Positions 17,680 to 49,785 of a DNA stretch of 64,000 bases are shown here, piece by piece; position 1 is the first letter of the stretch; each line of letters begins with the position of its first letter. The stretch comes from Sabellastarte sp. h YS-2021 (taxonomy: Eukaryota > Annelida > Polychaeta > Sabellida > Sabellidae): contig OZ024931.1 in NCBI GenBank assembly GCA_964017235.1, positions 100,644,221-100,708,220 of the forward strand, in the 5' to 3' direction. The notes beneath the pieces are model-generated. The model searched no databases. It was not told the DNA's origin and saw only the letters and a list, made by a program, of their open reading frames with translations. Made by a program: the position numbers and the translations under genes.

Positions 17680-17737
17680 GTAGGTATAGCACACTCCAAT
17701 AAAGACAGGCAACACAGTTAAGAGCATAGAAAATAGC

Positions 17738-17965
17738 TTTTTATTGCGTTGATACTTCCTACTCAATAGACAATTGCTAATCCAGTTGGCACAGACCGGC
17801 TCGCCAAATGACAGAAAAGCCATCTTGTGTTTCCACCAGCTGGGCTGGTCATGTGCTGTGCATTCGCCAGGTGGCGCATCGTACTTCCTTCCTGTCTAGA
17901 CAGCGTCACGTCATCGCATCTTTTTCGTTTGGCGCGTGTACTGTGCAGACGGATTTTCTATCAGC
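17738..17965. repeat. Left ITR of DIRS B
   Basis: Homologous to the left ITR of C at 26569-26800 and inverted relative to the right ITR at 22783-23055. It contains CTCGCCAAATGACAGAAAA and the block CGCCAGGTGGCGCATCGTAC. Confidence 0.8.
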
Positions 17966-18049
17966 TCTTAGAGTTTGAAATATTTGTGGATTAGTGCAAG
18001 TTTGTAACTATATTTTACTTCTGCGGATTATTGTCACTGTATAGAACAA

Positions 18050-19020
18050 CATGGCCTCTCCAAGACAGAAATGAGGAGATTGTGGCCATCTAATGGCAGG
18101 ATTTGATACACACAGTTTCTGCGCTAGATGTCGCAACAAAGTTAAGGGCCCAGACCTTTGTGTTGCAAATAGTGACTGTTCTCTCTGAAATGTTTTAACT
18201 AGTGACCAATGCACACAGTTGTCAACCCCTTGTTACAAACTTAAAAAGGAAAAACATGAATCAAAGAAATCTGATAAAACTGACACTCCAAGTCTCAGTC
18301 TCTCTCTCAGCCTGCCGACCGACCAACACCAGTTTAAACCGATGCCTCTACTTAGTGCAAGAAAGCATGTAGCCTCAACTCAAGGCAGTCTGGACTGACC
18401 ACGGCAAGGGAAGGTCCTTTGTCAAGGTATCAACAGCTCTTGATGAACTTTAGTGCCTCATGAACTTTAATGCCAGCATTAGCCAAGCCATGGCCAAGAC
18501 TATGGAGCATCTTAGTGACTGTGTCTTTGTTTCTGTGGCTAACCTCACCTTGGCAAGACGTAAGTCCTACCTATCACACCTGAAGACTGGCATAAAACCA
18601 GACATTCTGGCTGCTGTAAGAACTGTTCCACTCCAGATGGCCATGTTGTTCCCAGACAACGTTCTCAAGCGAGCGGAGGACATTACGAACTATGAATCTA
18701 AAGGACAAACTCACTCCAGCTCATCTCACAGGAATGGTTGATACCATCCTTATGAGCGTCCTGAGAAATGTCCTTATAGCAAGAGATCTGACAAGCCAGC
18801 TTGGAAAAACATTGGAGCATGTGGCCAGGGCAAGAGAACTAAGGGCAAGGCATTTCACTTTTCATCACGACCAGCCAATGGTAAGCAGTCCTGTTAATGA
18901 CAATTATTATGTAAATGCTCCAGTTTATACAGGACTGCTGACCGGGAGTAAAGAGACTGTAAATGTGTACCAGTCACCAGGGACTTTAACTTTAACCATA
19001 AAGACAATAGAACCTCAGAC
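18050..19020 (+). pseudogene. DIRS B gag pseudogene
   Basis: Starts ATGGCCTCTCCAAGACAG, but the eighth codon is TGA. The N-terminal Cys/His motif is readable (CGHLMAGFDTH, then CARCRNK) to about 18240. The middle of gag is deleted, and the C-terminal helix-rich part follows from about 18400 (ISQAMAKTMEHLSD, then LARRKSYLSHLK). Gag is thought to bind element RNA and form particles. The closest copy is C gag, at 28640-28900 for the C-terminal part. Confidence 0.8.
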
Positions 19021-19810
19021 ACAACACAACAGACTACAAGTGTAAACTCACATGTTGTAACCCTTGCACATATTGTAAAAGGGCAGCCGCAAAAGAAAGG
19101 CGGTAAGTCTGGTTGTTGTAAATTGTTATCAGAGATTAAAATATGTGAAAGATGTTTCCTGTGTCAATCAATTGTCTTTTGTCAAACCTGTAGCCAATGT
19201 CCCAACTATTGCTCTAGATCTACCAAGATTGCACAATTTTTGCGAGACTTGGGAAGCTCTGGGAGCCGGACCAAAAGTTGTAAAACTACTCAAAGAAGGT
19301 TACAGTCTTCCCTTTTGGATCCAACCAAACTTGACAAGGTCACTAACCATCGCGTCATAAGCTGTTATGTTAATCCCCACAGGAACCTCTACTTGTTGGA
19401 GGCATTACATCAGCTTATCAACAAAATTGCAGTAGAACTGGTAAAAAATCAGAAATCCCTGGGTTTTTTCAGCCGACTATTTTTGGTCCCAAGACCAAAC
19501 AACCAGTAGAGACCCATCTTAGACCTCAGCAATCTGAACAAGTTTCTCAAGGCAGAAAAGTTCAAAATGGAGACACCGGAAGCAATAAGGACCTCCCTCC
19601 AGACAGGGGAGGTCCAGGGTCAAACCTTCCAGTTCAAAGCACTGCCATTCAGTCTGTCCACAGTACCAATATAGTTTACATTAGTGGCCAAGGAGGTCAA
19701 ACTGATTGCATTACTAAAGGGTAAAAGGATCCACCAGTACCTAGATGACTGGTTGTTCAGACCCAGATCCCACCAAATCTGTCTCCAGCATACACAGACT
19801 GTAGTAGCTA
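19020..19810 (+). pseudogene. DIRS B pol remnant: Cys-rich module and truncated RT
   Basis: 19020-19240 encodes the Cys-rich module (KICERCFLCQSIVFCQTC). The RT N-terminus follows (LGAGPKVVKLLKEGYSLPF in one frame, then a frameshift to FFSRLFLVPRPNN). After KMETPEAIRTSLQ about 100 bp are missing, removing RT motif A and its catalytic aspartate. Motif B (ALPFSLSTVP) and motif C (YLDDW, about 19740-19754) remain. RT would copy the element RNA; this copy cannot. Confidence 0.85.
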
Positions 19811-20478
19811 TATACAAAACACAGGAATATATATGTGCCAATCACTTCTACTAGTTTATTTTATAAAGGTGTTATGGGCCTTAACATACTATTATGTTTA
19901 TTCACACACAACTGTATTTCCACAATCAGGTGAGTTGTCTCATCAGAGGCTGGAGAATTGACCAAGTCCTATCCCTGAAGTACTTTTTCAATGGTGCAAT
20001 TGCACCGGCTCATTGCACCGGTGCAGGTGTAGGTGCAAGCACCTCTTTATGGTGCAATTTGCACTTTATGCCCTATTGGTTTGAAAGTGTCCAGATAAGT
20101 GGACACAGGAATATGTATGTGCCAATCACTTCTACTAGTTCACTTTATAAAGGTGTTATGGGCCTTAACATACTATTGTGTTTATTCACACACAACTGTA
20201 TTTCCACAATCAGGTGAGTTGTCTCATCAGAGGCTGGAGAATTGACCAAGTCCTATCCCTGAAGTACTTTTTCAATGGTGCAATTGCACCGGCTCATTGC
20301 ACCGGTGCAGGTGTAGGTGCAAGCACCTCTTTATGGTGCAATTTGCACTTTATGCCCTATTGGTTTGAAAGTGTCCAGATAAGTGTTCTGGATGTATGGT
20401 GAGTGTTTTTATAAACCATTAAGTATTGGCTTATTTACAATGATGGGATATATTAGTGTCAAATTTCTATTATTAGGG
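19811..20478. repeat. 284-bp tandem duplication inserted in DIRS B RT
   Basis: Two nearly identical copies (about 19815-20098 and 20099-20382) followed by about 95 unrelated bases. Each copy holds a dense cluster of GTGCAA/TTGCAC inverted motifs (19996-20070 and 20276-20350). RT resumes at about 20479, with roughly 130 bp of RT lost at the junction. Confidence 0.85.
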
Positions 20479-21175
20479 TCAGACCCACCCAAGAGCATTG
20501 GCAGACCCTTACAGCAAAGATTCAAGAATTACTGGCCGGACCGTACATAGGACTGTTGACAGCCACAGCAAAACAAGTCCACCTAGGTCGACATATGAGG
20601 CCCTTACAGTAGCACCTGAAAAGCAATTTGAGGGTCCCAGATTCACTAGAAAAGGTGATCCCTATCCCCAGGTCGCTCTACCCCCGTCTAAGATGGTGGC
20701 TGGAGGAAGACCATGTGTTTCAAGGTCAACCATTACACCCACTAAAACATGCTCTGCAAATCTTCACAGACACATCAAAAGAAGGGTGGGCTGCTCACTA
20801 AGGAGAACACACTGCAAGAGGAACCAGGTCCCTTAAAGAAAGCAAGTTGCACATAAATTATCTGGAAGTGAAGGCGGTCTTTCTGGCACTAAAAGAGTTT
20901 TCCAAAACCTCTGCTTGAACAACATAGCTCTCATAGCTACAGACAACACCACTGTGGTTGACTACATAAGGAGGGGGGGGGGGGGGATGAAGTCAGGCCC
21001 TCTGTGTGCTGTTTTGTGGAGAATCCTGACCTGGTGTTCAGGAAAACAGGTGACTCTCAAAGCCCGACACATTTCAGGCCAGCTGAATGTGGTAGCAGAC
21101 AAGCTATCCAGGCTAGGCCAGACCATCTGGAGTGGTCTGTCCTTCCAGAGATCTTCCAATTGATATGCAACAGGT
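20479..21175 (+). pseudogene. DIRS B RT-thumb and RNase H pseudogene
   Basis: The translation resumes with RPT-type thumb sequence, then QIFTDTSKEGW (RNase H first Asp region, about 20758-20790), SKLHINYLEVKAVFLALKEF, ATDNTTVV, and QLNVVADKLSRLGQ. A run of 14 Gs (20973-20986) replaces a short Lys/Gly stretch and shifts the frame. RNase H degrades the RNA in the RNA-DNA hybrid. Not functional. Confidence 0.85.
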
Positions 21176-22532
21176 GGCATAAACCTCAGATAGACCTATT
21201 TGCTATTAGGTTCAACAACAAACTGACCCAGTTTATGTCACCAGTACCAGACCGCATGGCATGGGCAGTCGATGCAAGATCTGGATCCATATGCCTTCCC
21301 ACCCAGAAGCCATCTTGGGCAAAGTGGTGGAGAAATTGCAGGACTACCCGTGTCAAAGAATCATTCTGATTGGTCCAGGATGGCCCAACATGCCCTGGTT
21401 TTGGGATCTAGTGGACCATGTTGAGTCAGATCCTGCTGTGCTTGCCCCACATGCCCAACCTGCTCACTCAGCTATTCAATCAGACACCATACAGGAATCT
21501 GTCAAACCTAAATCTATACGCTTGGCTCCTAGAGCCTCATAAGTCAAAGAGCAGGGCTTCTCTGAGGCAGTGGCAGCAGAAATTGAAGCTCCTCAAAGGG
21601 GATCAACCAGATCAGCCTATGAGGAAAAGTGGACCATTTTTACAAAGTGTTGCCTCAGTAATCGGGTGGACTTCAGGGCACCCCCTGTAAAGTCCATAGC
21701 CGCCTTCCTACTGTACCTATTCCAAGACAGGAAGTTACAGTATCATTGATGGCTACAGATCAGCCATTGCTGTCAAACTGGGGAATTTGTCCATAAATGT
21801 CAGCAAAGATGCGAATCTCACTCGTCTTCTGGATAGTTTCCACAGAGACAGACCTAAAGGTCGGAGGGGTATCCCCTCCTGGAACCTCTCCCTGGTGTTG
21901 CACCAGCTGACAAAGGCTCCATTTGAACCAATTAAAGAGGCCTCTTTGAGGCATTTGACCTTCAAGTCTGTTTTCCTCTTGGCCCTGGGTTTGGGCAAAT
22001 ACAAGAGTGAGATCCATGCTTAGCAAAACAAGATCATGAGACATCAGTCAGACTGGTCAAAAGTCTCTCTTTACCCCTCACCAAGCTTTCTTTCTAAGAA
22101 CCAGCTGACCAAGGAGGGCCCCAGTGGTTATACCAGCCCTGGATAAGTAACTTAGATCTGATAGGTGCTTGTGTCTGGTCAGAACCTCAGACCTTAGGCT
22201 GAACAATGAGTTTTTGTCTCCTTCAAGAAAGGTTTTGACAAGGACATCTCCCCTGCCACTATCTCATCATGGATCAAGCAGAATCTGATCCTATGCTATG
22301 AGCTCTTGGATTAAGAGACCCTCACCTTACATCAGGTTAAAGCCGATGATGTGAGGGCTTTCACTGCTTCCAAGGCCTTCCAGTCAGGAGTCTCCTTGGA
22401 ACAAATCCTTTCAGCCTGCCATTGGAAGTCACACAACACCTTCACACAATTCTATCTCAAAAATGTGGCTTGGGCTGATTCAGAGCTCTACCATTTGGGC
22501 CCAGTAGTGGCTGCTCAGTAGATCCACCAGTA
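21176..22532 (+). pseudogene. DIRS B connector and tyrosine recombinase pseudogene
   Basis: Begins with the connector (HKPQIDLFAIRFNNK, then PGWPNMPWFWDLVD at 21376-21417). The YR follows: VDFRAPPVKSIAAF (about 21668), DANLTRLLDSFHRDRPKGRR (21808-21865), LGKYKSEIHA (Arg box altered from GKRRSE to GKYKSE), and ADDVRAF in place of the HxxR box near 22340. HWKSHNTFTQFYL is at about 22420-22455. Several frameshifts and loss of the catalytic His and Arg positions make it inactive. Confidence 0.85.
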
Positions 22533-22581
22533 GCTTACATTATTGATGAGGTTTGTACATATGTAAATAGTTCTATACAGT

Positions 22582-22582
<1 letters not shown>

Positions 22583-22615
<33 letters not shown>
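22583..22615. repeat. Poly(A) tract, 33 A
   Basis: Uninterrupted A run downstream of YR in DIRS B. Shorter A runs sit at the same place in A (about 1310) and C (about 42975). Confidence 0.95.
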
Positions 22616-22620
<5 letters not shown>

Positions 22621-22721
22621 TAAAGCTGGAAACAAAGGTGACGTGCTACCTTTAGGACTTTTATTTTCTGGGACTGAACTCATCCCTCTCTTCTCCTACC
22701 TCAGAGCAGGTCTGTAAAAAG

Positions 22722-22803
22722 ATAGGAGAAGATGTATTAATGAAATAAAATTGCAAATTTAATAAATAAATTAAAATTTTTATAAGTTAATACCCTACCC
22801 AAT
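22722..22803. repeat. ICR of DIRS B
   Basis: GATGTATTAATGAAATAAAA joined to TTTTTATAAGTTAATACCC reproduces the left-right junction in reverse complement. Confidence 0.8.
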
Positions 22804-23055
22804 GGACAGGCAAGATCCTCCCAACTGGCCCCGCTATCAGCTTACTAGTGGTCTAGATAGGTTTAGACACAAGTCTAGACAGGAAGAAAGTATGATTTCG
22901 AATGCACAGTACCTGACCGGCCCAGCCGGTGGAAACACAAGACGGCTTTTTCTGTTGTTTGGCGGTCCGGTCTGCGCCGACCGGATTAGTAAATGTCCAT
23001 TGGGTAGGATATTAACTTGTAAAAATTAATTTACTTATTAAACTTGCAAATTTTT

Positions 23056-23947: not shown

Positions 23948-23979
<32 letters not shown>

Positions 23980-24157
23980 TTGGAAAATTTCCCCATGGTC
24001 ATGAAACAAGACGGACACTAAATATAGTTTTGTAATTATACCAAACTATCCACTTATTTTTTTCCATTTCTATTTTTGCACTCAAAATTTTACTTTGAAG
24101 TTATAGCTTATTTGAGAAATGACTGTGGTCATGCCTGACATATATGAGGGGAACTTG
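23056..24157. other. Residual intron sequence, no gene
   Basis: AT-rich sequence between DIRS B and DIRS G. It holds a 31-base C run at 23949-23979. No exon or repeat was recognised. Confidence 0.5.
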
Positions 24158-24400
24158 TTATTGCTTTAATACATCTTACCTAACAGACAACTGCTATATG
24201 TCCGGCTCCAGCCGATCCAGCCAAACGTCAGATAAAGATATCCTGAGCTTCACCTCTGGCCGGACTGGTACAGTGCACTCCACTCCCCAGGGTGCCCAGT
24301 ACCTGCCTCACTTGCTAGGGGGATGTGGCATCATAGCGTCTTTTTTGTTGGGCGCATGTTTTGAAGTCAAGCTTTTGTTGGAAGAACTTTATTTTGAAGA
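24158..24400. repeat. Left ITR of DIRS G
   Basis: Aligned with F at 61556-61760: CTTACCTAACAGACAACTGC, a hairpin CGGCT..AGCCG (24203-24214), GCCAAACGTCAGATAAAGA. Inverse of the right ITR at 49440-49717. Confidence 0.8.
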
Positions 24401-24426
24401 TTATTCAGATAGTTGCTAGTTTTTTT

Positions 24427-25911
24427 AGTCGAATCTTTGATTCGAGTTATGTACTGAGTTGCGGCCACGATTTTAAATTGGCGGTTTAAACCCTTAAATA
24501 TCAAATTCTGAATAATATTTGTTCACATATCGGTACATTAAGGTGTATATTATACACTATGCCATTTTGAAGATTTTTAATGCTTTTATTCAGTTATATT
24601 TTATAAAGTAAAAAGCTTGTCTAGCACTTCGTCTGGCTTTCTCTAAGAACCCGTATGTCCTAGAAACTATTGTTTTCCCCATTGTAATGGTCTACTCGAA
24701 CGAGTCTTTTTTAACGGTTTCGTCTGCTGGTTTGTAGACGTGAATCCCCAATTAATTTATTTGTCTGCTGGGTTTATCACGCAGTTACTGTTTATGTAAA
24801 TTTGTTGTCTGCGCATCTACAGCCTATTACTCATTTGTCAAACAAATAAACCGCAAAGAAAATAATGAATGAAGTGACGTCACGGTAGTACTACACATTT
24901 GTCATTCAGCCAATCAGAATCGAGAACACGTCTGGCAGAGACAATGAAAATATTCAACCTCTGTAGTTCTACATTCAACCACTAGAAGGCACTTTTGTAT
25001 GTCCTAGAAGTTATCACGATGGGGTTTCTAACAACATTTTACAAATATATAATCCAGCAATATTTTACTGTCACCGCACCTCACTCTGTCTTCTCGCAAT
25101 ATTTAAAAGAAATAAAATATCAAATGCTGGTAGTTGTACACCCACAGAGTGCTGAAAACGTGAGGCTACAATGGTGTTTCTAACAATATTTTACAAATAT
25201 ATATAATCCAGCAATATTTTACTGTCACCGCACCTCACTCTGTCTTCTCGCAATATTTAAAACAAAATATCAAATGCTGGTAGTTTTACACCCACAGAGT
25301 GATGAAAACGTGAGGCTACGATGGGGTTTCTAACAACATTTTACAAATATATAATCCAGCAATGTTTTACTGTCACCGCACCTCACTCTGTCTTCTCGCA
25401 ATATATAAAACAAATAAAATATCAAATGCTGGTAGTTGTACACCCACAGAATGTTGAAAACGTGAGGCTACAATGGTGTTTCTAACTATATTTTAAATAT
25501 ATATAATCCAGCAATATTTTACTGTCACTGCACCTCACTCTGTCTTCTCGCAATATATAAAACAAATAAAATATCAAATGCTGGTAGTTGTACACCCACA
25601 GAGTGATGAAAATGTGAGGCTACAATGGTGTTTCTAACAATATTTTACAAATATATATAATCCAGCAATATTTTACTGTCACCGCACCTCACTCTGTCTT
25701 CTCGCAATATTTAAAACAAATAAAATATCAAATGCTGGTAGTTGTACACCCACAGAGTGATGAAAACGTGAGGCTACAATGGTGTTTCTAACAACATTTT
25801 ACAAATATATAATCCAGCAATATTTTACTGTCACGGCACCTCACTCTGTCTTGCGGGCGATAATACCAAGTTTACAGATTTCAACACCCACTGCTGTCCT
25901 AAGATTCGACT
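24427..25911. mobile_element. Satellite-bearing element X in the DIRS G leader
   Basis: The inverted pair AGTCGAATCTT (24427-24437) and AAGATTCGACT (25901-25911) bounds 1.49 kb that separates G's ITR from its gag. It has a unique head of about 580 bp and then a tandem array. No ORF or clear target duplication. The boundaries are inferred from the inverted 11-mers and from where G homology stops. Confidence 0.55.
25018..25855. repeat. X-type satellite, about 152 bp x 5.5
   Basis: TTTCTAACAAC/T recurs at 25025, 25177, 25327, 25479, 25631 and 25785. Each copy contains ATAATCCAGCAATATTTTAC and CCTCACTCTGTCTTCTCGCA. Confidence 0.95.
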
Positions 25912-25975
25912 CTGTGGTTGGCAGAAAGCCAGCCACTTCGCCCTAGTTTTCCTTTTGTAATCATTTAACTTTATT

Positions 25976-26568
25976 GTGGCTTCACCGGGTTAACACAGAG
26001 GTTCCTGTGAGCACATAATGGCTATTTTGAACCAACATCAACATTGTACTAGATGAAGAGAGAAGGGTCAGGGTAATGGTCCCTGTGTGTTGAAGCAAAC
26101 GTAGGAAAGATAAAGAAAAGAAGAAAGTTTAAGACTTAAGGACCCTTCCTCTGTTACAAGCCCTCATCCAAGACAGCTTTCTCACCGATGGAAGCACCAG
26201 TCTCTCATCCAGCACCAAATTAATTTTACTTTAAGTTCCAATAGTTCTACAACCAAAGCTGGCCTGGCTTCTATTTGGATGGTTCTCAGGCAACTCAGTC
26301 AATGGAAATGTTGTCTCCTGTACAAAATCTGTACCGTGATCCGGAACCAGTCTTCTCCCATCCAAGCACTGCCTAAGGCCCTTCAACATTTATCTGACTT
26401 TACCTTTATGCAGACGGCCAATCTCACTCTGGTGAGGAGAGATTCTTATCTGGATCACTTAAAGCAGGGCGTCAAACTGGACACTTTCTATGCCCTCAGA
26501 AACTGCCCACTGAATGGATATGCCTGGGGACAGTTCATGTTGTTCCATGTGTTGTAGAAAAAAGACAA
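25976..26568 (+). pseudogene. DIRS G gag pseudogene
   Basis: The start has become GTG (GTGGCTTCACCGGG, against ATGGCTTCACCAGG in F), and a stop follows five codons later. The Cys/His region survives as RGSCEHIMA and GPCV. Most of the centre is deleted. The C-terminus reads LQHLSDFTFMQTANLTLVRR, like F gag. DIRS C interrupts it at about 26569, and the downstream half of G restarts at 43629. Confidence 0.8.
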
Positions 26569-26800
26569 TTTTATTGCGTTAATACATCCTATCCAATGGA
26601 CAATTGCTAATCCGGTCGGTGCAGACCGGCCCGCCAAACGACAGAAAAAGTTGCCTTATATGAATGCATAATGCCCTCACAAGCTGACTGGTCCCATTGT
26701 GCACTCGCCAGGTGGCGCATCGTACTTCCTTCCTGTCTAGACAGCGTGACGTCATAGCATCTTTTTCATTTGGCGCGTGCACTGTTCAGACGAAGTTATT
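26569..26800. repeat. Left ITR of DIRS C
   Basis: Contains a CCGGTC..GACCGG hairpin (26612-26629), CCCGCCAAACGACAGAAAAA, CGCCAGGTGGCGCATCGTAC and a palindromic TGACGTCA (about 26748). It is inverted relative to 43330-43628. It probably includes the promoter, because gag begins about 100 bp later. Confidence 0.8.
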
Positions 26801-26895
26801 TGGTGAGATATTTTTTGGAAATTTCATTATACTTGTAAGCTTAATTTTTATTTGTGTCATGTTACATTACTTCATAGAACTCTCAGATTCAGTTA

Positions 26896-38200: not shown

Positions 38201-38865
38201 ATAGCTGAGTAATAGCTACTTTGAAGTTCTCACTGTTGAGTAAATCAGTTGTAATTGGAAAACTATTGCCTTTACAAAAATTTGTGCAAATATGTTATTC
38301 AGCTACTTTTGGGTCAGCTATAACATAGTGAAATTACAGACCTGTAGCTCATGGCACAACTGAGCAATAGCTATTCTCAGGCACTGACTGTTGAGTAAAT
38401 CGGCTATAACTTGAAAAATATTGCATTTGGAGTATTTTGTTAAAATATATTGTTCACCTACTTTTGGGTTAGCTATAACATAGTGAAATTACAGACCTAT
38501 AGCTCATGGCATAGCGGAGCAATAGCTATTTTCAGGTTCTCACTATTGAGTAAATCAGTTGTAACTTGAAAACTATTGCATTTACAGTATTTTGCTTAAA
38601 TATGTTGTTCACCTACTTTTAGGTCAGCTATAACAGAGCAAAAATTCAGACATGTAGCTCATTGCATAGCTGAGTAATAGTTACTTTGAGGTTCTCACTC
38701 TTGAGTAAATCAGTAGTAACTTGAAAACTATTACATTTAGAGTATTTTGTTAAATATGTTATTCACAGACGTTTTGGTCAGCTATAACATAGTGAAATTG
38801 CAGACCTCTATGTCATGGCATAGCTGAGCAATAGCTTCTTTCAGGTTCTCACTGTTGAGTAAATC
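35280..38865. repeat. S-type satellite array, 155 bp x about 23
   Basis: GGGTCAGCTATAACATAG-type anchors at 35521, 35676, 35830, 35986, 36141, 36296 and 36451 give periods of 154-156 bp. Variant monomers (TTTAGAG..TTCGTATA against TTTACAG..TTTGCTTA) alternate, and longer blocks repeat, for example 36390-36780 against 37170-37560. Confidence 0.95.
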
Positions 38866-39690
38866 ATTGTATCCAACCTGTAGGAAATCATGGGCTGGGA
38901 ATCTGTTAATATGGTCCGATTTGACCTTGGAACCCTCCTTCAAGGTCAAATGAGGATAGCCAAACATAAAAGTGCTTATAACTCGCTTATTATTGGTCCT
39001 AGAGGTTTGGAATGAAAACCAACCTATAGAAACTCATGAGCTGGGAATTTTTTGGTGTGGTCGGATTTCACCTTGGACCCCTCCTTCAAGGTCAAATGAG
39101 GATAGCCAAACTTAAAAGTGCTTATAACTCGCTTATTATTGGTCCTAGAGGTTTGGAATGGAAAACCAACCTATAGAAAATCATGGGCTGGGAATCTTTT
39201 GGTGTGGTCAGATTTCACCTTAGACCCCTCCTTCCAGGTCAAACGAAGATAGCCAAACTTAAAGTGCTTATAACTCGCGTATTATTGGTCTTGGAGGTTT
39301 GGGATGGTAAACCAACATATAGGAAATCATGGGCTGGGATTCTTTTGGTGTGGTCAGATTTGACCTGGGACCCCTCCTTCAAGGTCAATTGAGGATAGCC
39401 AAACTTACAATTGCTTAGAACTCGCTTATTATTGGTCCTACAGGTTTGGGATGGTAAACAAGCTACAGGAAATCATGGCTGGGAATTTTTTTGTGTGGTC
39501 GGATTTGACCTTGGACCCCTCCGTCAAGGTCAAACAAGGATAGCCAAACTTAAAAAGTGCCTATGACTCACTTATTATTGGTCCGAGAGGTTTGGGATGG
39601 TAAACCATCCTAAATTCTTTGGCTGGGAATCTTTTGGTATGGTCAGATTTGACCTTTGGACCCCTTCTTCATGGTCGAACGAGGATATTG
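38866..39690. repeat. T-type satellite array inside element S
   Basis: About 5.5 monomers with TATAACTCGCTTATTATTGG and the GACCTTGGACCCCTCCTTCAAGGTC palindrome. S-type sequence resumes at about 39690. Confidence 0.9.
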
Positions 39691-39840
39691 CATTTATAGT
39701 ATTTCTTTAAATATTTTTAACCTACTTTTTACACTTAAACAATTACCTTGTTACTTTATTTCATAATACCATTTGCAGGGCACAACTTTTTTGTCCTTTT
39801 TTTCTGTCAGCTTCGGAATATCTTTCGAACATGCTGTTCA

Positions 39841-42800
39841 GTTATTGTACCAACTTACAAAGAGAAATTAAAGTATGTGAAAAATGTTTTCTGTGTCAAT
39901 CCCTTGTCTTTTGCAAGTACTGTACAAAATGCCAAACATGTTGCTCAAAATCAACCTGTAGGGGCATGACTTCAAAATTTTTGGCAAACTTGGTTGGATC
40001 TGGGTGCCAGTCCGAAAGTTGTTCAAATCCGGAGAGAGGGTTATCCCCTCCCCTTTCGGACTCGGCCAAAACTCACACGTTTTGCCACTGTCATAAGCCG
40101 TTATGTCAATCCCCACAGGAACAGCTACCTGTTGGAGGCATTACATCAGCTTATAGACAAGAACGCAGTGGAACTAGTACAAAATCAAAAATCTCAGGGC
40201 TTTTTCAACCAACTATTTTTAGTCCCAAAACCAAACAACAAGTGGAGGCCTATACTAGATCTGAGCAATATAAATCTCTTCCTCAAGGTGGAGAAATTAA
40301 AAATGGAGACACCGGAAACCATCAGGACTTCCCTCCAACAAGGGGAGTGGGTGACCTCAATAGACTTCAAGGACGCCTACTTTCATATCCCAATACAGGA
40401 ACAGTCCAGAAAATATCTGAGATTTCATGTAGAGGGTCGAACTTACCAGTTCAAAGCTCTGCCCTTTGGTCTGTCCACAGCACCTATGGAGTTCACTGTG
40501 GTAGCAAAGGAGGTGAAACTGATGGCCATACACAAGGGTATAAGAATCCACCAGTACCTAGACGACTGGTTGGTGAGAGCCAGATCCCACCAAACCTGTC
40601 TCCAGCATACCCAAACTCTAGTGAAAATGTGTCAAGACCTAGTTTGGCTGGTAAATGTAGAGAAATCAGAGCTGGAGCCCAAACAAGTCTTCAATTTTGT
40701 AGGCAACCAGTTCGACCTCAGGTCCAGTCGGGTCTGACCAACACCGGAACGGTGGCAGAACCTTCAGGAGAAAATAATAATAATAATACCCAGGTCCCTG
40801 CACCCACACTTACAATGGTGGCTGGAGGAGAGCATTGTGCTCCAAGGTCGACCATTACACCCAATAAAACATGCTCTGCAAGTCTTTACAGACTCATCAA
40901 ACGAAGGGTGGGGCGCTCACTTAAACGAACGCACTGCAAGAGGGTCCTGGTCTCTGCCAGAAAGCAAGCTGCATATAAACTATCTGGAACTAAAAGCAGT
41001 CTTCCTGGCTCTGAAAGAGTTCCAAGACCTCTGTTCAAACCAGATAGTACTGGTGGCAACCGACAACACCACAGTAGTGTCATACATAAACAAGGAAGGA
41101 GGCATGAGGTCAGGTCCACTATGTGCCCTCCTGTGGAGAATCTTGACCTGGTGTACCAGCAAACAAGTAACTCTAAAGGCCTGACACATTCCAGGCCGGC
41201 TGAATGTGGTAGCAGACAAACTATCCAGGCTAGGCCAGACCATCCAGACAGAATGGTCCTTTCTTCCAGAGGTCTTCCGAACAATATGCAGCAGGTGGCA
41301 CCGGCCTCAAATAGACCTATTTGCCATGAGGTTCAACAACAAGCTGCCCCTGTTTGTTTCACCAGTACCGGATCCCCTGGCCACAGCAGTGGACGCACTC
41401 AGTCTACTATGGGAGGATCTGGACGCATACGCCTTCCCACCAGCAGCCATATTGGGCAAAGTGGTGGAGAAGTTGCAGGACTCCCCATGCAAAAGAATCA
41501 TTCTGATTGCCCCGGGGTGGCCGAACATGCCTTGGTTTTGGGACCTGGTGACCATGTCCACTCGAATCCCACTGTGGCTGCCCAACCTGCCCAACCTTTT
41601 AACTCAGCCCTTCAACCAGATCCCTCACAGAAATCTGGCAAACCTGAATCTCCATGCATGGCTCCTAGAGTCTCAGCAATTAAAGAGCAGGGCTTCTCTG
41701 AGGCAGTGGCAGCTAGAATTCAGGCTCCTCACAGAAGATCAACCAGATCAGTCTATGAGACAAAGTGGGCCATTTTTCCAATGGTGCATCACTAATCAGG
41801 TGGACTTCAGGGCACCCCCTGTAAAGTCAGTGGCTGACTTGTTAATGTACCTGTTTCAGGACAGGAAGTTACAGCCCAGTACCATTGATGGCTACAGGTC
41901 TGTCATTGCTGATAAATTAGGAAACTCAGCCATTAACATCAGCAAAGATGAAAATCTCACCCGTCTCTTGGATAGTTTTCACAGAGACAGACCCAAAGGC
42001 CGGAGGGGAATCCCCTCTTGGACAAAGTTGGGGTTTTACGTCCCGTTCAACAGCCAGGGTCATATTGGGACAGGTCCTCAGAATTGCCACTTGTGGGACT
42101 CGAACCCACAGAGGTGACAGCCTATGATTAGATGCCAAACTTGCTAACCACTAGGCCACTGAGGACCTCTAGAATCCCCTCTTGGAACCTTTCCCTGGTT
42201 CTACACCAGCTGACAAAGGCTCCCTTTGAGCCTATCAGAGAGGCCTCCTTGAAGCATTTGACCTTCAATACAGTCTTCCTATTAGCCCTTGGGTCAGGCA
42301 AATGCAGAAGTGAAATTCATGTGTGGCAAAACAAGAACATCAGGCACCAGTCTGACTGGTCTAAGGTGTCCCTGTTCCCATCACCCAGCTTTCTGTCCAA
42401 GAATTAGCTGGCCAAAGAGGGTCCAGACAGTGTGGCCCCAGTGGTTATACCAGCCCTGGCCCCAACTCTGGATAGATCCCTCAAGTCTGACAGGTCTCTC
42501 TGTCCGGTCAGAGCCGTGCGCTACTATTTGGATAGGACCTCAGACCTCAGGCAGAATAAAGAGTTGGTCTTTGTCTCCTTCAAGAAAGGTTTCGACAAAG
42601 ACATCTCACCTGCCACTATCTCCTCATGGATCAAGCAGACTGTGATCCTACGTTTTGAGCTCTCAGATCAAGAGGCCCACACCTTGCATCAGGTCAAAGC
42701 CCATGATGTCAGGGCCTTTGCTGCTTCTAAGGCCTTCCAGTCGGGAGTCTCCTTGGAACAAATCTTGTCAGCCTGCCACTGGAAATCACATAATACCTTC

Positions 42801-42890
42801 ACACAATTTTATCTGAAGGATGTGGCTTGGGCTGACTCAGAGCTCTACCACCTGGGACCTGTAGTGGCTGCTCAGCAGATCCACCAGTAG
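39841..42890 (+). pseudogene. DIRS C pol pseudogene: Cys-rich module, RT, RNase H, tyrosine recombinase
   Basis: The Cys-rich module (VCEKCFLCQSLVFCKYC) is followed, in another frame from 39994, by RT (GFFNQLFLVPKP). Motif A has Asp at 40363-40365, ALPFGLSTAP is near 40453, and the motif C Asp pair is at 40561-40566. The thumb is shortened by about 45 residues around an (ATA)5 run. RNase H has its first Asp at 40891-40893, then LELKAV, ATDNTTVV and NVVADKLSR. YR runs from about 41690: GKCRSEIH (Arg kept), AHDVRAFAASKAF and HWKSHNTFTQFYL. Broken by TGA 40735, TGA 41182, a SINE at 42022-42171 and TAG 42405. The other residues I can check look intact. Stop of YR at 42888. Confidence 0.9.
42022..42171 (-). 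mobile_element. tRNA-derived SINE in DIRS C YR
   Basis: On the minus strand GTGGCCTAGTGGTTAGCA (A box) and GGGTTCGAGTCCCACA (B box) are about 45 bp apart, followed by a short body ending GACGTAAAACCCCAACTTT. It is flanked by perfect 14-bp duplications GAATCCCCTCTTGG (42008-42021 and 42172-42185), as made by LINE-driven insertion. Length 150 bp. Confidence 0.92.
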
Positions 42891-42996
42891 TCCAGGACAT
42901 AGAGGAGATTTGTACATATGTAAATAGTTGTACATATGTAAATATTTGTACATATAGTTAAGAAGCATTGTTCAAAAAAAAAAAAAACTCTGACGT

Positions 42997-43010
42997 GCTT
43001 CCTTCGGGAG
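42997..43010 (+). promoter_or_regulatory. Conserved UUCG-tetraloop hairpin 3' of YR (element C)
   Basis: CTTCC-TTCG-GGAGG, identical to 1334-1347 in A. It is preceded by an A run and followed by the conserved block GGACTGGACTCATCCCTCTC. Confidence 0.5.
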
Positions 43011-43251
43011 GTTTATTCTATGGGACTGGACTCATCCCTCTCTTTCCCTACCTCAGAGCAGGTCTGTTTAAAAAGGGGGGGGGGGTCGTCTTGGACCAGG
43101 TAACCGGTTTCTGTTAACCGATTATGGCCTTAAGGGTTTTTGACCTCAAGGTCAACCCAGGCTTGAAAAGAAAAATTTGTTAGTTCTGTTTAGGAGTTCA
43201 TCTAAGTCCCTAGTAACTTACCCGCCGACCAAGCAGTAGTTATTCAGCAAT

Positions 43252-43340
43252 TGTCCATTGGATAGGATGTATTAACACAATAAAATTGCAAATTTAATAA
43301 GTAAATTAAATTTTTATAGGTTAATACCCTACCCAGTGGA
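43252..43340. repeat. ICR of DIRS C
   Basis: GATAGGATGTATTAACACAA joined to TTTTTATAGGTTAATACCC. The right ITR follows to 43628 and includes GGCGGGCCGGTCTGCACC. Confidence 0.85.
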
Positions 43341-43628
43341 CACACAAGACCCTCCCACCGACCCCGCTATCAGCTTACTAGGGGTGTAAATATGTTTAGA
43401 CAACAAAAAAGATGCTATGACATCAAGCTGTCTATACAGGAAGGAAGTACGATGCGCCACCTGGCGAGTGCACAATGGGACCGGCCAGCTTGTGAGGGGA
43501 TTATGCACTCATATAAGGCGACTTTTTCTGTCATTTGGCGGGCCGGTCTGCACCGACCGGATTAGCAATTGTCCATTGGATAGGGTATTAACTTATAAAA
43601 ATTTAATTTACTTATTAAATTTGCAATT

Positions 43629-43885
43629 CTGTATGTGTGACTTCCAATGTTGTTTGTCCTGGTGTGACTCCTGTACATTTTCCAACAAAATTGTCAAGGT
43701 ACTTGCAAAAAAAGCATAAGGCCTTTATTAAAATAGAAAAGAATGAAGCTTGTGAAAAGTGCTTCTATTGTAGATCATTGTTGTTCTGTCCCCAGTGTCT
43801 TAAATGCCCTCAATGTTGCATTCACTCAACCTGCGGGTGGTCACATGCAAAAATTTTGGTAGACTTGGGATCATCTGGATGAGAA
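43629..43885 (+). pseudogene. DIRS G pol, Cys-rich module
   Basis: Begins exactly at C's right end, with CDFQCCLSWCDSCTF, and continues EACEKCFYCRSLLFC, then CLKCPQCC and STCGW. The cysteine spacing matches B and C. The ORF ends at a TGA (43880) as RT begins in another frame. Confidence 0.8.
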
Positions 43886-44680
43886 TCAAAAAGTGGTCAC
43901 GATCTTGAAGGACGGTTAGGTGCTCTCATTCAAGATCAGACCTACTCTCACCAGGATCCGTTGATTATTAGCGGATATGAAAATTCCCCCCCTGCCCCCA
44001 GGAACAGCTACCTGGAGGAGACTTTGGATTTCTGGATCCAGAAACAGACAATAGAAATAGTGCAGGTTCAATCCTTCCAGGCCTTTTTCAACAGGTTGTT
44101 TCTGGTACCCAAACACAACAACATATGGCTTCCCATTCTTGATCTGAGTACTCTGAACTGTTTTTTTTTCATTGAAAACCTTCAAAAAGCTTCAGTGCCT
44201 TGGCAGATGTTTACATCAATTTCGCCGCTTTATAAATGTCTATGAGAATGTCTTTGCACTCAGGGGAATGAGTGACTTCTCTGGACTTTAGCGACCCATA
44301 TTTCCACACTCCCATAGCCCAAAGGTCATGAAAATTTCTGAGATTCTATTTATAAGGCGAAATTTATCAGTTAAAAGCCCTCCCCTTTGGTCTCTAAACA
44401 GATTCAGTGGAGTTTACTTGTGTGGTCAAAGAGGTCAAGTTAATGGCTCAAACAAGGAGTATAAAAATCCACCAGTACCTAGATAAGAGCCCAAACAAAA
44501 GAATCCTGCAACCAGGACACTCAATCTATCCTGGCCCTTTGTCAGGAGTTGGGTTGGGTGGTCAATCTCACCAAGTCAGAGTTGGAACCGAAACAGACTT
44601 TCGACTTTGTAGGTTATCAATACAATCTCTTGCAGTCTGGTCAGGCCCACCCAAAGCAAGTCACTGCAACAGAAACTTGT
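43886..44680 (+). pseudogene. DIRS G RT pseudogene
   Basis: Readable blocks: FFNRLFLVPKHNN (about 44086-44125), a disrupted motif A region, LKALPFGL-stop-T (about 44373-44400), VVKEVKLMA, and IHQYLDK. The last shows that YLDDW has become YLDK with the second catalytic Asp lost (about 44477-44488). SELEPKQTFDFVGYQYNL closes the palm. Confidence 0.85.
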
Positions 44681-45181
44681 CTCTCTGATGTCAAAACCAA
44701 CATGTCATGTGAGACAATTCATGGGTTTCTCACTGCAATAAAAAAACAGGTGCCCTTGGAAAGGAAAATCCCAGTTCCCAGATCTCTGAACCCTCATCTT
44801 CAGTGGTGGACCCAGGAAGCAAATATTCTTCCGGGTCAACCTTTGTGTCCCCTTCAGCATGCCCTTCAGGTCTTTATGGGCACCTTAAATGAAGACCTTG
44901 GTGCTGGCCTAGGAGACAACACAGTAAGAGGGACTCGGTCAGTTCCAAAAAGCAAGTTGCACATAAACTTTCTGGAACTAAAAGCCATTCTGCCAGCTCT
45001 AAAATGGTTCAAGCTCCTTGTTCAGGGAAAAACTGTGTTGATTGCCACAGACAACACCACAGTTGTAGCCTACAAAAACAAGTAGGGCGATATGAGATCA
45101 GGCTCACTTTGTGTCTTTCTATGGTAACTCCTTTCAAGGTACAATATAAGGCAGATTTTTCTGAAAGCCAGGCATATTCCA
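44681..45181 (+). pseudogene. DIRS G RNase H pseudogene, first part
   Basis: ALQVFMGTLNEDLGAGL replaces the usual VFTDSSNEGWGAH, so the first RNase H aspartate is lost. HINFLELKAILPAL, ATDNTTVVAYKNK and KARHIPG follow. H1 interrupts it at 45182. Confidence 0.85.
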
Positions 45182-45725
45182 GGGGCCGATTTCACAAAGG
45201 GACTTAAGTCCAGATTTAGACTTAAATTTAAGACTTTGGTCTTAAATTTTGTCAACAGAATGTTAAGTCTGTGGTCTTAGACTTAGCGGATTTCACAAGG
45301 CAGCTAAGTCCATGAAATTGCTAAGTCAGTGGACTTAACTTTAAGTCTGTGAGGTAGTGGGCTTAAATTTTGTAAAGAGGTCTTAAATATGGCCGCCATA
45401 AACTTTTCTCCACTTCAAAATTTGAAATGGCTGTAAATAAAGTATAATTATAAAGAACACTTTACTGAAGTAGTCTTTGGGAAGCGTATATGATGTAATA
45501 AGGTTTTCTATTTCAAAACAGTACTTATCCTCAGATAAAATACATCAAATGAAGGATATAAAAGGTCATATAACACAGAAAACCACTGTGGTTATTTGAT
45601 AAGCTAAGTCACCCTTTGTGAAATCCATTTAAGTCCCAGACCTAGCTAAGACCAAAGTCTTAGATTAAAGTCCAAGACTTAGCCAATAAAGGGACTTAGT
45701 TTAAGTCCTTTAGTGAAATCACCCC
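45182..45725. mobile_element. MITE-like element H1, 544 bp
   Basis: Ends GGGGCCGATTTCACAAAGGG and CCTTTAGTGAAATCACCCC are inverted copies. The interior is packed with CTTAAGTC/GACTTAAG motifs and a second, inner pair (GGATTTCACAAGG at 45289 and CCTTTGTGAAATCC at 45615). No ORF. It splits RNase H of G between RHIPG and GYLNVIADKL. Confidence 0.85.
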
Positions 45726-45771
45726 TGGTTATCTGAATGTAATTGCAGACAAACTCTTCCTTCGGGGTCAA
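45726..45771 (+). pseudogene. DIRS G RNase H, 46-bp island between H1 and H2
   Basis: Encodes GYLNVIADKLFLRGQ, the NVVADKLSRLGQ block of RNase H, isolated between two insertions. Confidence 0.8.
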
Positions 45772-47957
45772 GGGCCGGTTTCATGAAGCCTTCTTTGTTT
45801 TTTCTTCCTTAAAGTAAAGGAAGAGGGATTTCTAACCTTTGGCAAGGCTTCCCTCAAATCCTGTTTCACAAAGCCTCCTTTATTCCACCTTACCAGAGAT
45901 TTTCCTTAACAAAGGAAGAGTGATTCGCTGTATAACCACATTGCTTGGAATTTCCCTCCATTGCTTATATAACCTTCACACAATTTAGTTTAAATATTAA
46001 GAGCGTAAATTGCATTTTAGCATTTTAACTATTTTAATCTTGGTACATTAGGTACATTTTAATTTTCAGATACATCATTTGCATTTTTATTTCTTTTGGG
46101 AGTTGTTTCCAAAACCTATAACCACACCAATGTTTTTCTTTCACTGTAAGTACATGTGTACTTGTGCACTTATTTTGTACCTAAATTACCTTATGGATTC
46201 AATGTCCTTACTGTAACACTGTTAAAGATCAATAAAGTCAGTAAATCTATATTTTACTATATTATCACCCACCCGGCTCGCCGGCGGGAGATTATACTTT
46301 GTACCATGTGTGTGTGTGTGTGCGTGAGTGTGTCACGCAGTTTTCTCTGAAACTACTATAGTTTCACATTTTTGGTTAATTACATGTCCTAATGAATTTT
46401 TACGCTCTTCAATATTTTTGGGGGTTTGGTGAACTTTGACCTACTTTTGAGTGAGTAATAGCACTTTTACCTAATATAATTATATGACTTATAACTCTCA
46501 AACTATTGCATTTAGAGTATTTTGTTCAAATATGTTATTCAGGTACTTGCTCCACAGCTACAGCATGGTCAGTAGTTTGGAACTGTATCTCCATATGTTG
46601 TTCATCTACTTTTTTGTGCTACTTTTAGTGGAAATGTGAAAAAAATCAAAAATATCTCGAAAACCGAGATAGAGTGATTTCGAGGAAATTTTTGACCTGC
46701 AGGGTAGTACAAGAGTATCCTGTGAGTAGGGGAAAAATTTCAGTTTTCGCCTCTTTTGGCGGCCATCTTGGATTTTAGCAGAAAATGAAAAAGTGTGAAT
46801 ATCTCGAAAACCGTAACAGATAGAGTGATTTTGAGCGAATTTTTGACCCACAGGGTAGTACAAGAGTATGCTATGCACAGGGGAACAATTTCAATTTTCA
46901 CCACTTTTGGCGGCCATCTTGGATTTTAGCGGAAAATGAAAAAGTGTGAATATCTCAAAAATCGTAAGAGATAGAGTGATTTTGAGTGAATTTTTGACCC
47001 ACAGGGTAGTACAAGAGTATCCTATGGAAAGGGGAAAAATTTCAATTTTCCCCACTTTTGGCAGCCATCTTTGATTCAAGCGAAAAATAAAACATTGAAA
47101 ATATCTCAGAAACGGTAAGAGATAGAGTGATTCTGAGCAAATTTTTTACCCACAGGGTAGTACAGGAGTGTCCTGTGGCTGGGGGAAAAATTTCAATTTT
47201 TGCCACTTTGGGCGGCCATCTTGGATTTTAGCGGAAAATGAAAAAATGTGAATATCTCAAAAACCGTAAGAGATAGAGTGATTTTGAGTGAATTTTTGAC
47301 CCACAGGGTAGTACAGGAGTGTCCTGTGGCTGGGGGAAAAATTTCAATTTTTGCCACTTTTGGTGGCCATCTTGGATTTTATAGCGGAAAATGAAAAATT
47401 GTGAATACCTCGGAAAAGGTATTTCTTCCCCTTTAATGCTCGGCGGGAGATACACACCGCGGCAGTGGTCTTGTTTTAATAAATTTTGTAAAATGCAGTT
47501 TGGTTGTGATTATATTTTGCAAATTAATAAAGTTGGTCACATGACAATTTTTACCCAAAGTAAGGGAGGGGCCCTTTATGTTCAAGTAAACTCCATGAAT
47601 ACGTTTCTCACTTCAAAAGTTTGAACATCAGTTTTTCAAGAATTAAACAACCAAATTGTATGAAATAAACAGCAAAACATTGTTTGTGGATGTAGGTTTG
47701 ACAATAATGTTTCAAGTTCTATATATTTAGGTGGATTCACCTTAAAATGTTCATTAAAGTTAATAAACATTCCTTGAAGGACACTTCCTTAAGTCTAAGG
47801 TAGGTCCTTAGCTTCCTTGAAATTCAAGGGAGTTTTCAAGGTCTCCTTTAAGGAAGGAGGCTTTGTGAAACTGAGATCTTTTAAAGGCGGGAGAAAATCA
47901 AGGAAATCCTAGAATTTAAGGTGACCTTTATCTTAAGGAGGCTTCGTGAAACCGGCC
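45772..47957. mobile_element. TIR element H2 carrying a satellite, 2.2 kb
   Basis: Ends GGGCCGGTTTCATGAAGCC and GGCTTCGTGAAACCGGCCC are inverted. Subterminal repeats of the same motif occur at 45869 (TTTCACAAAGCCTCC) and 47857 (GGAGGCTTTGTGAAAC). The interior includes a (TG)8 run (46307-46322) and an S/U array (46440-47400). No ORF. The TIR resembles that of H1 (GGGCCGRTTTCA). Confidence 0.85.
46440..47400. repeat. U-type satellite array, 151 bp, inside H2
   Basis: GAGATAGAG-type anchors at 46666, 46817, 46968, 47119 and 47270 are each 151 bp apart. Units include GACCCACAGGGTAGTACA and GGCGGCCATCTTGGATTTTA. One S-like unit (46445-46600) precedes them, as in the higher-order repeat at 4282-5555. 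Confidence 0.95.
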
Positions 47958-49375
47958 CCAGGTCATTCAGACAGAATGGTCTCTCCTGCATGAGGTATGC
48001 AACCAGATTTGTCTGGAGTGGCACTGTCCAAAGGTGAATAAATCCCTTTGCCACCAGATACAACAACAAGCTGCCCAAGTTTGTGTCCCCAATTCGGGAC
48101 CCCAAAGCGTGGGCAGTAGCTGCTCTGACTTTGTCTTGGGAGGATCTGTATCTGAACGATTTTCATCCAGTTTCTCTCCTGGGAAAAATTATCAGTAAAA
48201 TCTCAGATCACTTGTGCATTGTCATTCTGGTAGCCTCGGGTTGGCACAACAGGCTGTGGTTTGGGGACCTAGTCAATCTGTTGTCCTAAATTACCAAATG
48301 CCTCCCCAACCAACCCAATCAAGTGAGCCAACCTTCAACTGAGCCTTTAGCAGAGATCTGGTGAATCTCAACCTCAATAACTGGCTCCTGGAGCTGCTTC
48401 AATCAAAGAACAAGGTTTCTCTGAGCAAGGTGCAATAAGAATTGAGGCTCCTCAAAGATGCTCAACCAGAGCATTCTATGAAAGAAAGTTTTGTTCGATG
48501 GTGCAAAGCAAGTCAGATGGACTTCAGGTCGCCATCTATCAAGGTTATAGCTGATTTTCTCCTGCACCTTTTCCAGGGTAAAAATCTCTAGCCTAGTACT
48601 ATTGATGGCTATAGGTCAGCCATCTCTGACAAGATTGGGAGTTCTTCCTTAAATATTAGTAAGGATGAAAACCTCAATCATCTTTTGGACAGGTTGCATA
48701 AAGACAAATCCAAAGGTTGTAGGAGTGTCCCCTTGTGGAACCTCCCTTTCGTCTTACATCTGTTGACCAAACCACCTTTTGAACCCTCAAAAAGACTTCC
48801 TTAAAACATCTGACCTTTAAGATGTTTTTTCTTCTCACCTTAGGTACTGTGAATCATAGAAGTGAAACATATGCATGGTTGAACAAGAATATTAGACCCC
48901 AGATAGAATGGTCAAAATTTTTTGCCAAGAATCATTTGGCTAAAGAGGGCCCAGAGTGTGTGGCCCCAATGGTAATCCCTGCCCCGACTCCCACACTGTC
49001 CACCAAAGGGGACAGGACCCTTTACCCAGTCAGAGCCTTGTGCTATTATCTGGACAGGACCAAAGATCTTAAGACAAAATAAGGAGCTTGTGTTTGTCTT
49101 CATCAAGAAGAGCTTTGTCAAGAATATTTCTCCTGCCACTATTTCTTTTTGGATAAAGCAATGGTTATCCTCCGCTCTGAGTTGTCAGATCAGAAAGCTC
49201 ACACTTTACATCAGGTTAGATCACATGCTGCCTGAGCCTTTGCTACTTCCAAAGCTAGTTCACCAGTTAATATTCAGGATTGAGCAATGTTATTGGCTAT
49301 TAAAAAGAGTTCTGCCTTTAGTCCCTTGTAAGCTTCCCTCCATCCACTGGGTAGTTAATCTAGCTGTTGTCTGTT
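47958..49375 (+). pseudogene. DIRS G connector and tyrosine recombinase pseudogene
   Basis: Resumes after H2 with IQTEWSL-like sequence, then the connector (LPKFVSPIRDPKAWAVAALTLSWEDL), then YR: ADFLLHLFQ (about 48550), TIDGYRSAIS, FFLLTLGTVNHRSETYAWLNKN (Arg box altered), YPVRALCYYLDRTKDL (49024-49072), and a heavily frameshifted end without a clear HxxR or Tyr box. Inactive. Confidence 0.8.
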
Positions 49376-49456
49376 AGGTAAGATGTATTACTGCAATAAA
49401 TAGAAAATTTAGGTTGTAAATTCATTTTTTTATCAGTTAATATCTTACCTAACAGA
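49370..49456. repeat. ICR of DIRS G
   Basis: GTAAGATGTATTACTGCAAT joined to TTATCAGTTAATATCTTACC reproduces the junction of G's right and left ends. The right ITR runs on to 49717. Confidence 0.8.
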
Positions 49457-49785
49457 CAGTACATTCCCACCCATCCTGCCCCACATTTATCTTGCTGCGG
49501 ACTTAATCTTTAGAGGAATGAAAAAGCGATGATATGTCCCTCTAGGAAGTGAGGAGGGAACTAGGTAACCTGGCAGGTGGAGAGCACTGTACCGGTCTGG
49601 CCAGAGGTGAAACTCAGGATGTCTTTTTCTGTCGTTAGGTGCAAGCTAGACATATAGCTATTGTCTGTTAGGTAAGATGTTAACCAATAAAAATTTAATT
49701 TACAGCTTAATTTTCTAGTTTGAGCTGTTTCAGTTGATGACAAGCATTGTGTAGTGATGCATTCATTGTTTTTGACTGCCTGTAG

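What the first reader, a model, noticed from the sequence alone, without database searches (positions are those of the whole stretch)
17680..49785. Four-level nested retrotransposon stack fills one tetraspanin intron
Seen directly: C sits between the two halves of G's coding sequence, D and S sit between C's gag and pol, and a T-type array lies within S. This gives a relative order: G, then C, then D, then S. The gag/pol-bearing elements share the host gene's orientation, which is unusual because sense retrotransposons in introns often harm splicing.
Basis: partly seen in the sequence, partly recalled or inferred. Interest (0 to 1): 0.72.

Follow-up and report, generated by a model that had tools for sequence, protein, structure and literature searches.

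The report
Sense-oriented DIRS stack in tetraspanin intron
A 32-kb intron of an animal tetraspanin gene is built almost wholly from jumping elements nested inside one another, and in this gene and the others sampled the large elements lie with striking regularity in the direction in which the gene is read, which may tell how they choose their strand.

Summary
The stack is real. Exons 17581-17679 and 49786-49902 encode adjoining parts of a tetraspanin and bound a 32,106-bp intron, 96% of it inside two top-level elements. The elements are DIRS1-like tyrosine-recombinase retrotransposons, not LTR elements. E1 lies beside G; G holds C; C holds D and S; S, a Helentron-type (HINE-like) satellite carrier, holds a second array. 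Terminal-repeat distances (G 0.223, C 0.074, D 0.049) agree with the nesting, though C and D do not differ significantly. An inverted copy of C beside D lacks S and serves as its empty site.

The stack alone is ordinary: DIRS-1 is known to insert into DIRS-1. The surprise is orientation. In the 148 kb examined, 14 DIRS coding clusters are sense; the single antisense one is the inverted C copy. Array queries with several places are all sense. Of 13 flanks of other tetraspanin exons, the 9 with such repeats are mainly sense; upstream of S at 26 other places, all 19 informative loci agree, one barely. Short repeats are mixed. Human ERVs in introns show the opposite bias. I weakly favour strand choice at insertion over selection. 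Transcripts, reads and a genome-wide census are missing.

The parts
17581..17679 (+). Tetraspanin exon (large-loop part 1), 99 nt, phase 0-0
   Evidence: joint peptide with next exon:
17680..49785 (+). Intron, 32,106 bp
   Evidence: donor GTAGGT and acceptor CTGTAG by eye
17738..23055 (+). E1, DIRS1-like element beside the stack, with a 284-bp tandem duplication at 19819-20385
   Evidence: termini 17757-17901 / 22873-23009, K2P 0.169; domain pieces
24150..26567 (+). G, left piece: left terminus and gag remnant, with array 25019-25852
26568..29066 (+). C, left piece: left terminus and gag; begins with ATT
29067..34772 (+). D, DIRS1-like element; ATT at left end, AGT at right end; pol interrupted by in-frame stops
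29186..29412 (-). Inverted copy of C's right flank of D, without S (pre-S empty site)
   Evidence: 29183-29280 = 39841-39938 inverted, 98 bp 100%; alignment
34773..34867 (+). C, middle piece between D and S
   Evidence: alignment
34868..39841 (+). S, Helentron-type (HINE-like) element with 155-bp array; replaced 37 bp of C
   Evidence: 3' end not established
38873..39687 (+). T-type 147-bp array inside S's array
39842..43628 (+). C, right piece: RT, RNase H, recombinase, internal complementary region, right terminus; ends with ATT; short repeat at 42023-42173
43629..49722 (+). G, right piece: Cys-rich/RT to recombinase and right terminus, with a TIR-ended insert at about 45182-47959
49786..49902 (+). 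Tetraspanin exon (large-loop part 2), 117 nt, phase 0-0

Best explanation
Shown from sequence: a tetraspanin intron that would otherwise be about 1.2 kb grew to 32 kb by serial insertion. DIRS1-like elements E1 and G entered the intron, C entered G, D entered C, and the satellite-carrying S entered C after an inverted duplication at D's left end. C carries the same 3-bp ATT at both ends; D carries ATT at the left and AGT at the right. Shown at the places sampled: the orientation is not incidental. In this gene the DIRS elements and the array-bearing elements that could be tested are sense, and the same holds for most such repeats in flanks of other tetraspanin exons. Inferred and less certain: the strand is chosen at insertion. 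Helentron-type elements are thought to move as a single strand and DIRS as a circle recombined into DNA; if both use the strand left exposed by transcription, or the lagging-strand template of a fork running with the gene, the element's plus strand ends up in the coding strand. A preference of DIRS for existing DIRS copies then builds co-oriented nests.
For: Paired inverted termini and internal complementary regions; RT and RNase H profiles over cut-off; collinear domain pieces on both sides of the inserts; ATT at both ends of C, as tabulated for Aplysia elements (PMC3266345 passages); distances G 0.223, C 0.074, D 0.049; inverted C copy without S. Orientation: 14 plus clusters to 1 minus, the minus one being the inverted copy; S155 11:0, T147 4:0, H151 7:0, A16982 5:0, A51808 6:0, X152 2:0 (some queries overlap); 1018 direct matches over 2 kb apart to 146 inverted at any distance, nearly all of them DIRS termini; 9 of 9 informative tetraspanin flanks of 13, p 0.0039, and 19 of 19 informative S loci of 26, p 3.8e-6. 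For strand choice at insertion: no T/A asymmetry in 19.5 kb of unmasked sequence; short repeats mixed; no megabase-scale strand domains. DIRS-1 insertion into DIRS-1: PMC5633606 passages.
Against: No transcripts, reads or related species. Controls are flanks of one gene family, and three rest on exon hits below Pfam's cut-off (L058-L060). Only one DIRS element lies in those 13 flanks. Exceptions: a 91-bp inverted array match in L048; L024 almost evenly split, 118 to 110 bp; L043 with inverted matches only in the wider comparison. S loci include S's own family, and their gene context is unknown. Donor-like motifs are commoner on the antisense strand of D (9 to 2), C's pol piece (7 to 1) and the S array (9 to 3), as selection would want. 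Short or other repeats in the control flanks also lean direct, 14 to 7. The step from strand to mechanism has no direct test.
Confidence: 0.5

Rival explanations
1. Selection: insertions occur in both orientations, but antisense DIRS and array elements in introns are removed because they bring splice or polyadenylation signals, or make RNA complementary to active elements.
For: Donor-like motifs are commoner antisense in D, C's pol piece and the S array; acceptor-like motifs antisense in T147 (8 to 0). Selection on orientation is the accepted reading for human ERVs (PMC1794541, abstract).
Against: E1 has equal donor-like counts, H151 and A16982 have more on the sense strand, A51808 has none on either, and poly(A) hexamers are not commoner antisense overall; the bias is near total even deep in long introns; short repeats are mixed.
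Confidence: 0.35
2. Exclusion of inverted repeats: once a gene holds copies in one orientation, opposite copies are unstable or make double-stranded RNA and are lost.
For: Very few inverted matches apart from DIRS termini in 148 kb. The human Alu precedent was seen only as titles in a reference list.
Against: It predicts agreement within a family, not between unrelated families, and not with gene direction; both are seen. DIRS termini are inverted repeats themselves and persist.
Confidence: 0.05
3. Sampling: the pattern is chance or specific to this gene and a few related loci.
For: One gene family, 13 flanks, 26 S loci; elements within a gene are not fully independent.
Against: 9 of 9 and 19 of 19 loci agree, on both strands and several contigs.
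Confidence: 0.08
4. The stack is an assembly artefact.
For: No reads were available, and the region is repeat-rich.
Against: Paired termini with distances that match within elements, ATT at both C ends, collinear pieces on both sides of the inserts and in-phase exons are not expected from random joins.
Confidence: 0.02

Closest known systems
DIRS1-like retrotransposons (PMC3266345, passages), including the Aplysia AcaDIRS elements
   Same: Inverted termini, internal complementary region, RT and RNase H, recombinase end, ATT at both ends of C
   Different: Old, broken copies; the recombinase matches Pfam only below its cut-off and no methyltransferase was detected; D has AGT at its right end
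DIRS-1 of Dictyostelium, which inserts preferentially into DIRS-1 (PMC5633606, passages)
   Same: DIRS within DIRS
   Different: There clustered at centromeres; here in an intron, co-oriented with the gene
HINE / Helentron non-autonomous elements carrying satellite-like arrays (PMC7492417, PMC4067079, passages)
   Same: T-run at the 5' end, palindromic subterminal repeat, central array of about 155-bp units
   Different: S replaced 37 bp of target; its 3' structure was not established; it holds a second, unrelated array
Orientation bias of human ERVs in introns (PMC1794541, abstract)
   Same: A strand bias of intronic elements relative to the host gene
   Different: There antisense; here sense and near-total at the places sampled

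Membership tests
DIRS1-like retrotransposon | Inverted terminal repeats | tested here: met
   E1, G, C and D
DIRS1-like retrotransposon | Internal complementary region matching both ends | tested here: met
   C 97.7% and 93.4%, D 95.7% and 94.0%, G 81.6% and 79.0%; in E1 only the right half is clear, 91.7%
DIRS1-like retrotransposon | Same 3-bp motif at both ends, no target-site duplication beyond it | tested here: inconclusive
   C has ATT at both ends; D has ATT and AGT; E1 and G too diverged to read
DIRS1-like retrotransposon | Reverse transcriptase and RNase H | tested here: met
   PF00078 66.2 and 77.9 bits for D and C; RNase H families just over cut-off; E1 and G by similarity to these
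DIRS1-like retrotransposon | Tyrosine recombinase | tested here: inconclusive
   C end piece PF00589 22.1 bits, under the cut-off of 27.1; no recombinase match for the D pieces given; R, HxxR and Y motifs by eye from recall
DIRS1-like retrotransposon | Methyltransferase domain | tested here: inconclusive
   No Pfam match in 32408-33616 or 41185-42114
HINE (Helentron non-autonomous) | T-rich 5' end with palindromic subterminal repeat, shared by copies with different flanks | tested here: met
   minus-strand copies were printed unturned and not compared at the end
HINE (Helentron non-autonomous) | 3' subterminal repeat and palindrome, TT target, no target duplication | tested here: inconclusive
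   The search with the right end did not complete; the S site lost 37 bp
Tetraspanin gene | Tetraspanin profile and large-loop cysteine motifs | tested here: met
   PF00335 35.8 bits; PDB tetraspanins; CCG and PFSCC in the peptide
Tetraspanin gene | Exons joined in a transcript | not testable with these tools
   No RNA data; further candidate exons on the same strand at window -51676 and 86169

The most novel reading that the evidence does not exclude
In this animal genome, elements that move through circles or single strands (DIRS and Helentron-type satellite carriers) enter transcribed DNA in one orientation only, because the element strand is joined to the strand that transcription, or a co-directional replication fork, leaves single-stranded. 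Intron growth by nesting and the dispersal of satellite arrays would then both be dictated by gene direction.
Probability: 0.3. Interest if true: 0.85.

Novelty: new variant of a known kind. Interest (0 to 1): 0.58.

Why it matters
How DIRS circles and Helentrons choose target and strand is open (from general knowledge). A near-complete sense orientation across unrelated families, opposite to the bias reported for human ERVs, would make strand choice testable from genome annotation and young insertions alone. It might also help explain how a gene can carry so many such elements while its exons stay in order.

Tried and rejected
LTR gag/pol identity: rejected, because termini are inverted and an internal complementary region is present. 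T-rich target as the cause of orientation: not supported, T-runs and A-runs are about equal in 19.5 kb of unmasked sequence (52 to 60 at five or more). Megabase-scale strand domains: not supported, 63 of 117 neighbour pairs agree, permutation p 0.39, after two of three tandem copies were dropped from the 132; the 4 pairs under 300 kb all agree. Reading the short 31-aa C_YR hits in L048, L051, L052 and L054 as DIRS: rejected, they are a separate short repeat, 3 sense and 2 antisense in the flanks; they stand under DIRS in the tally and were moved. Dropped before the counts: L003-L008, which overlap L048-L053 or showed little (L001-L008 are exon loci); L018 (home); L034, L046, L047 (same places as L030, L043, L038). 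Host identification: genome size made me read passages of the zebra mussel genome paper; nothing settled it, and the species is unknown.

Literature: ten searches. No listed title or abstract start described sense-only DIRS or HINE in introns; that covers only the open-licence library and the rows listed, and I did not read the listed papers through.

Full report
What was checked. The window is C5:100644221-100708220 of a 1.786-Gb genome in 647 contigs, animal by its tetraspanin and elements. The finding's interval is bounded by splice sites: donor at 17680 (GTAGGT) and acceptor ending at 49785 (CTGTAG), both flanking exons in phase 0. Together the exons encode part of the large loop of a tetraspanin; the best solved relatives are Tetraspanin-10 (E 1.2e-19) and Tetraspanin-15 (4.6e-17), and Pfam agrees. 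An N-terminal exon hit lies about 52 kb upstream of the window and a candidate further loop exon at window position 86169, both on the plus strand. That all belong to one gene is inferred from order and strand; no transcript was available.

The stack. Comparison of the window with itself on both strands gives paired inverted termini for four large elements: E1 (17757-17901 with 22873-23009), G (24152-24323 with 49537-49696), C (26567-26766 with 43406-43603) and D (29077-29185 with 34628-34734). Before its right end each has sequence complementary to its own ends, in E1 clearly only for the right half. This is the structure given for DIRS1-like elements (PMC3266345, passages). RT and RNase H profiles match in C and D; the recombinase match in C is below Pfam's cut-off and absent for the D pieces. 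Domain pieces are collinear: G's gag piece matches up to about 26512-26554 and its Cys-rich/RT piece from 43658; C's gag ends near 29083 and its RT side resumes after 39841. Up to about 300 bp of G between its two pieces was not aligned. C has ATT at both ends (26568-26570, 43626-43628), as tabulated for the Aplysia elements; D has ATT at the left and AGT at the right.

Age order. Kimura distances between the two termini are G 0.223, E1 0.169, C 0.074 and D 0.049, with standard errors 0.045, 0.040, 0.021 and 0.023. G against C is clear; C against D is within error, so for D the nesting itself is the evidence.

A built-in empty site. D's left end holds about 227 bp of C in inverted orientation (29186-29412). 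It matches the C sequence on both sides of S without a difference except at the S junction and the outer end of the alignment, carries 37 bp that are missing at S, and lacks S. So S came after this inverted duplication. The likely route, inferred, is a fold-back or template switch between D's two terminal repeats that ran on into the right flank and rejoined D's left terminus.

S and T. S starts with a T-run and the palindromic repeat GTCAGCTGAC. Its first 140 bases gave 30 matches in the genome, the home copy included, and plus-strand copies share that end with different flanks. With its 155-bp array this fits Helentron-type non-autonomous elements that carry satellite-like arrays (PMC7492417 and PMC4067079, passages). 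The 3' end was not established. T, a 147-bp array, interrupts S's array. G also carries an array (25019-25852) and an insert with terminal inverted repeats (about 45182-47959, by eye).

Orientation, the unexpected part. In 148 kb around the gene (C5:100590000-100738220), window DIRS pieces gave 14 merged coding clusters on plus and one on minus; the one on minus is the inverted C copy. Allowing for split elements I count at least 11 separate elements, all sense; one of the 14 clusters (92944-93993) lies past the last exon seen. Of 18 repeat queries in the same stretch, the array units and flanks with two or more places were all plus, for example 11:0, 4:0, 7:0, 5:0, 6:0 and 2:0, some queries overlapping; the queries with both strands were the DIRS termini and one element with its own inverted repeats. 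Many of the 33 arrays found by TRF were not queried separately. Compared with itself, the stretch holds 1018 direct matches more than 2 kb apart (394,590 bp) and 146 inverted matches at any distance (15,944 bp), all but about ten of them DIRS termini.

Controls. I fetched flanks of other tetraspanin exons, 13 loci on both strands; three rest on exon hits under Pfam's cut-off (L058-L060). Turned to gene orientation and matched against the home gene, 9 of 13 hold arrays, DIRS or the R15010 repeat, and in 9 of 9 the majority is sense, sign-test p 0.0039: arrays 10 direct to 1 inverted, R15010 6 to 0, DIRS 1 to 0, short or other 14 to 7 (some of the direct ones adjoin arrays). In the 1.49 kb upstream of S at 26 other S loci, turned by S, 19 are informative and 19 of 19 are mainly direct, p 3.8e-6; L024 is split almost evenly (118 to 110 bp), and L043, not among the 19, has only inverted matches in the wider comparison. 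The array class includes S's own family, so part of this agreement is within a family; T147, A16982, A51808 and DIRS also agree with S where they occur, with L024 as the mixed case. Unmasked sequence of the gene span (19.5 kb) shows no T/A asymmetry. The 132 scored copies of the D family, of 68,646 first-look candidates, show no megabase-scale strand domains.

Interpretation. Nesting alone is ordinary: DIRS-1 is reported to insert preferentially into DIRS-1 (PMC5633606, passages). A near-total sense orientation across unrelated families is opposite to the bias of human ERVs in introns (PMC1794541, abstract). I favour strand choice at insertion, since the families affected are ones thought to move through circles or single strands while short repeats are mixed; this is inference. 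Selection remains a close rival because donor-like motifs are commoner on the antisense strand of D, of C's pol piece and of the 155-bp array, though not of the other families. My odds: the DIRS nest as described 0.95, the sense pattern beyond this gene about 0.8, strand choice at insertion as its cause about 0.4.

Limits. Host species, transcripts and reads are unknown.

Noticed in passing
window 61263-61381 (+): A U12 snRNA match of 119 nt, internally shortened, lies in a D-like element where D has no counterpart. Of 15 U12 matches over cut-off in the genome, 2 are 151 nt and 13 are 118-120 nt (44 of 122,479 candidates scored), which suggests a U12 copy riding on a DIRS family.
   Followed up: partly
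genome-wide, query window 31139-32032: The D reverse transcriptase has 68,646 loose candidates; 132 were scored, many with the same score at 92% identity, so a homogeneous young family exists. Three lie in tandem at C6:76067913-76079966.
   Followed up: partly
window 29067-29593: D's left end is doubled around an inverted piece of C; the inner copy carries the right-end sequence, as after a fold-back between D's terminal repeats.
   Followed up: partly
window 57036 to about 84700 (past the window end) and -22490 to -13380: Termini and coding pieces suggest two more DIRS nests in neighbouring introns of the same gene.
   Followed up: no
window 1940-2321 and 57214-57621: The left flank of two T-type arrays begins directly beside a DIRS terminus in both places.
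   Followed up: no
window 61801-63948 (+): A long open frame of 715 aa related to the DIRS gag pieces; no Pfam match at E 0.001.
   Followed up: partly
window 56500-56781 (-): An open stretch on the minus strand that by eye resembles a non-LTR (LINE) reverse transcriptase, so antisense to the gene; not tested with a profile.
   Followed up: no
window, e.g. 2322-4182, 35446-38871, 46666-47411, 51808-52368: Many of the dispersed arrays have units of about 147-169 bp, close to nucleosome length.
   Followed up: no
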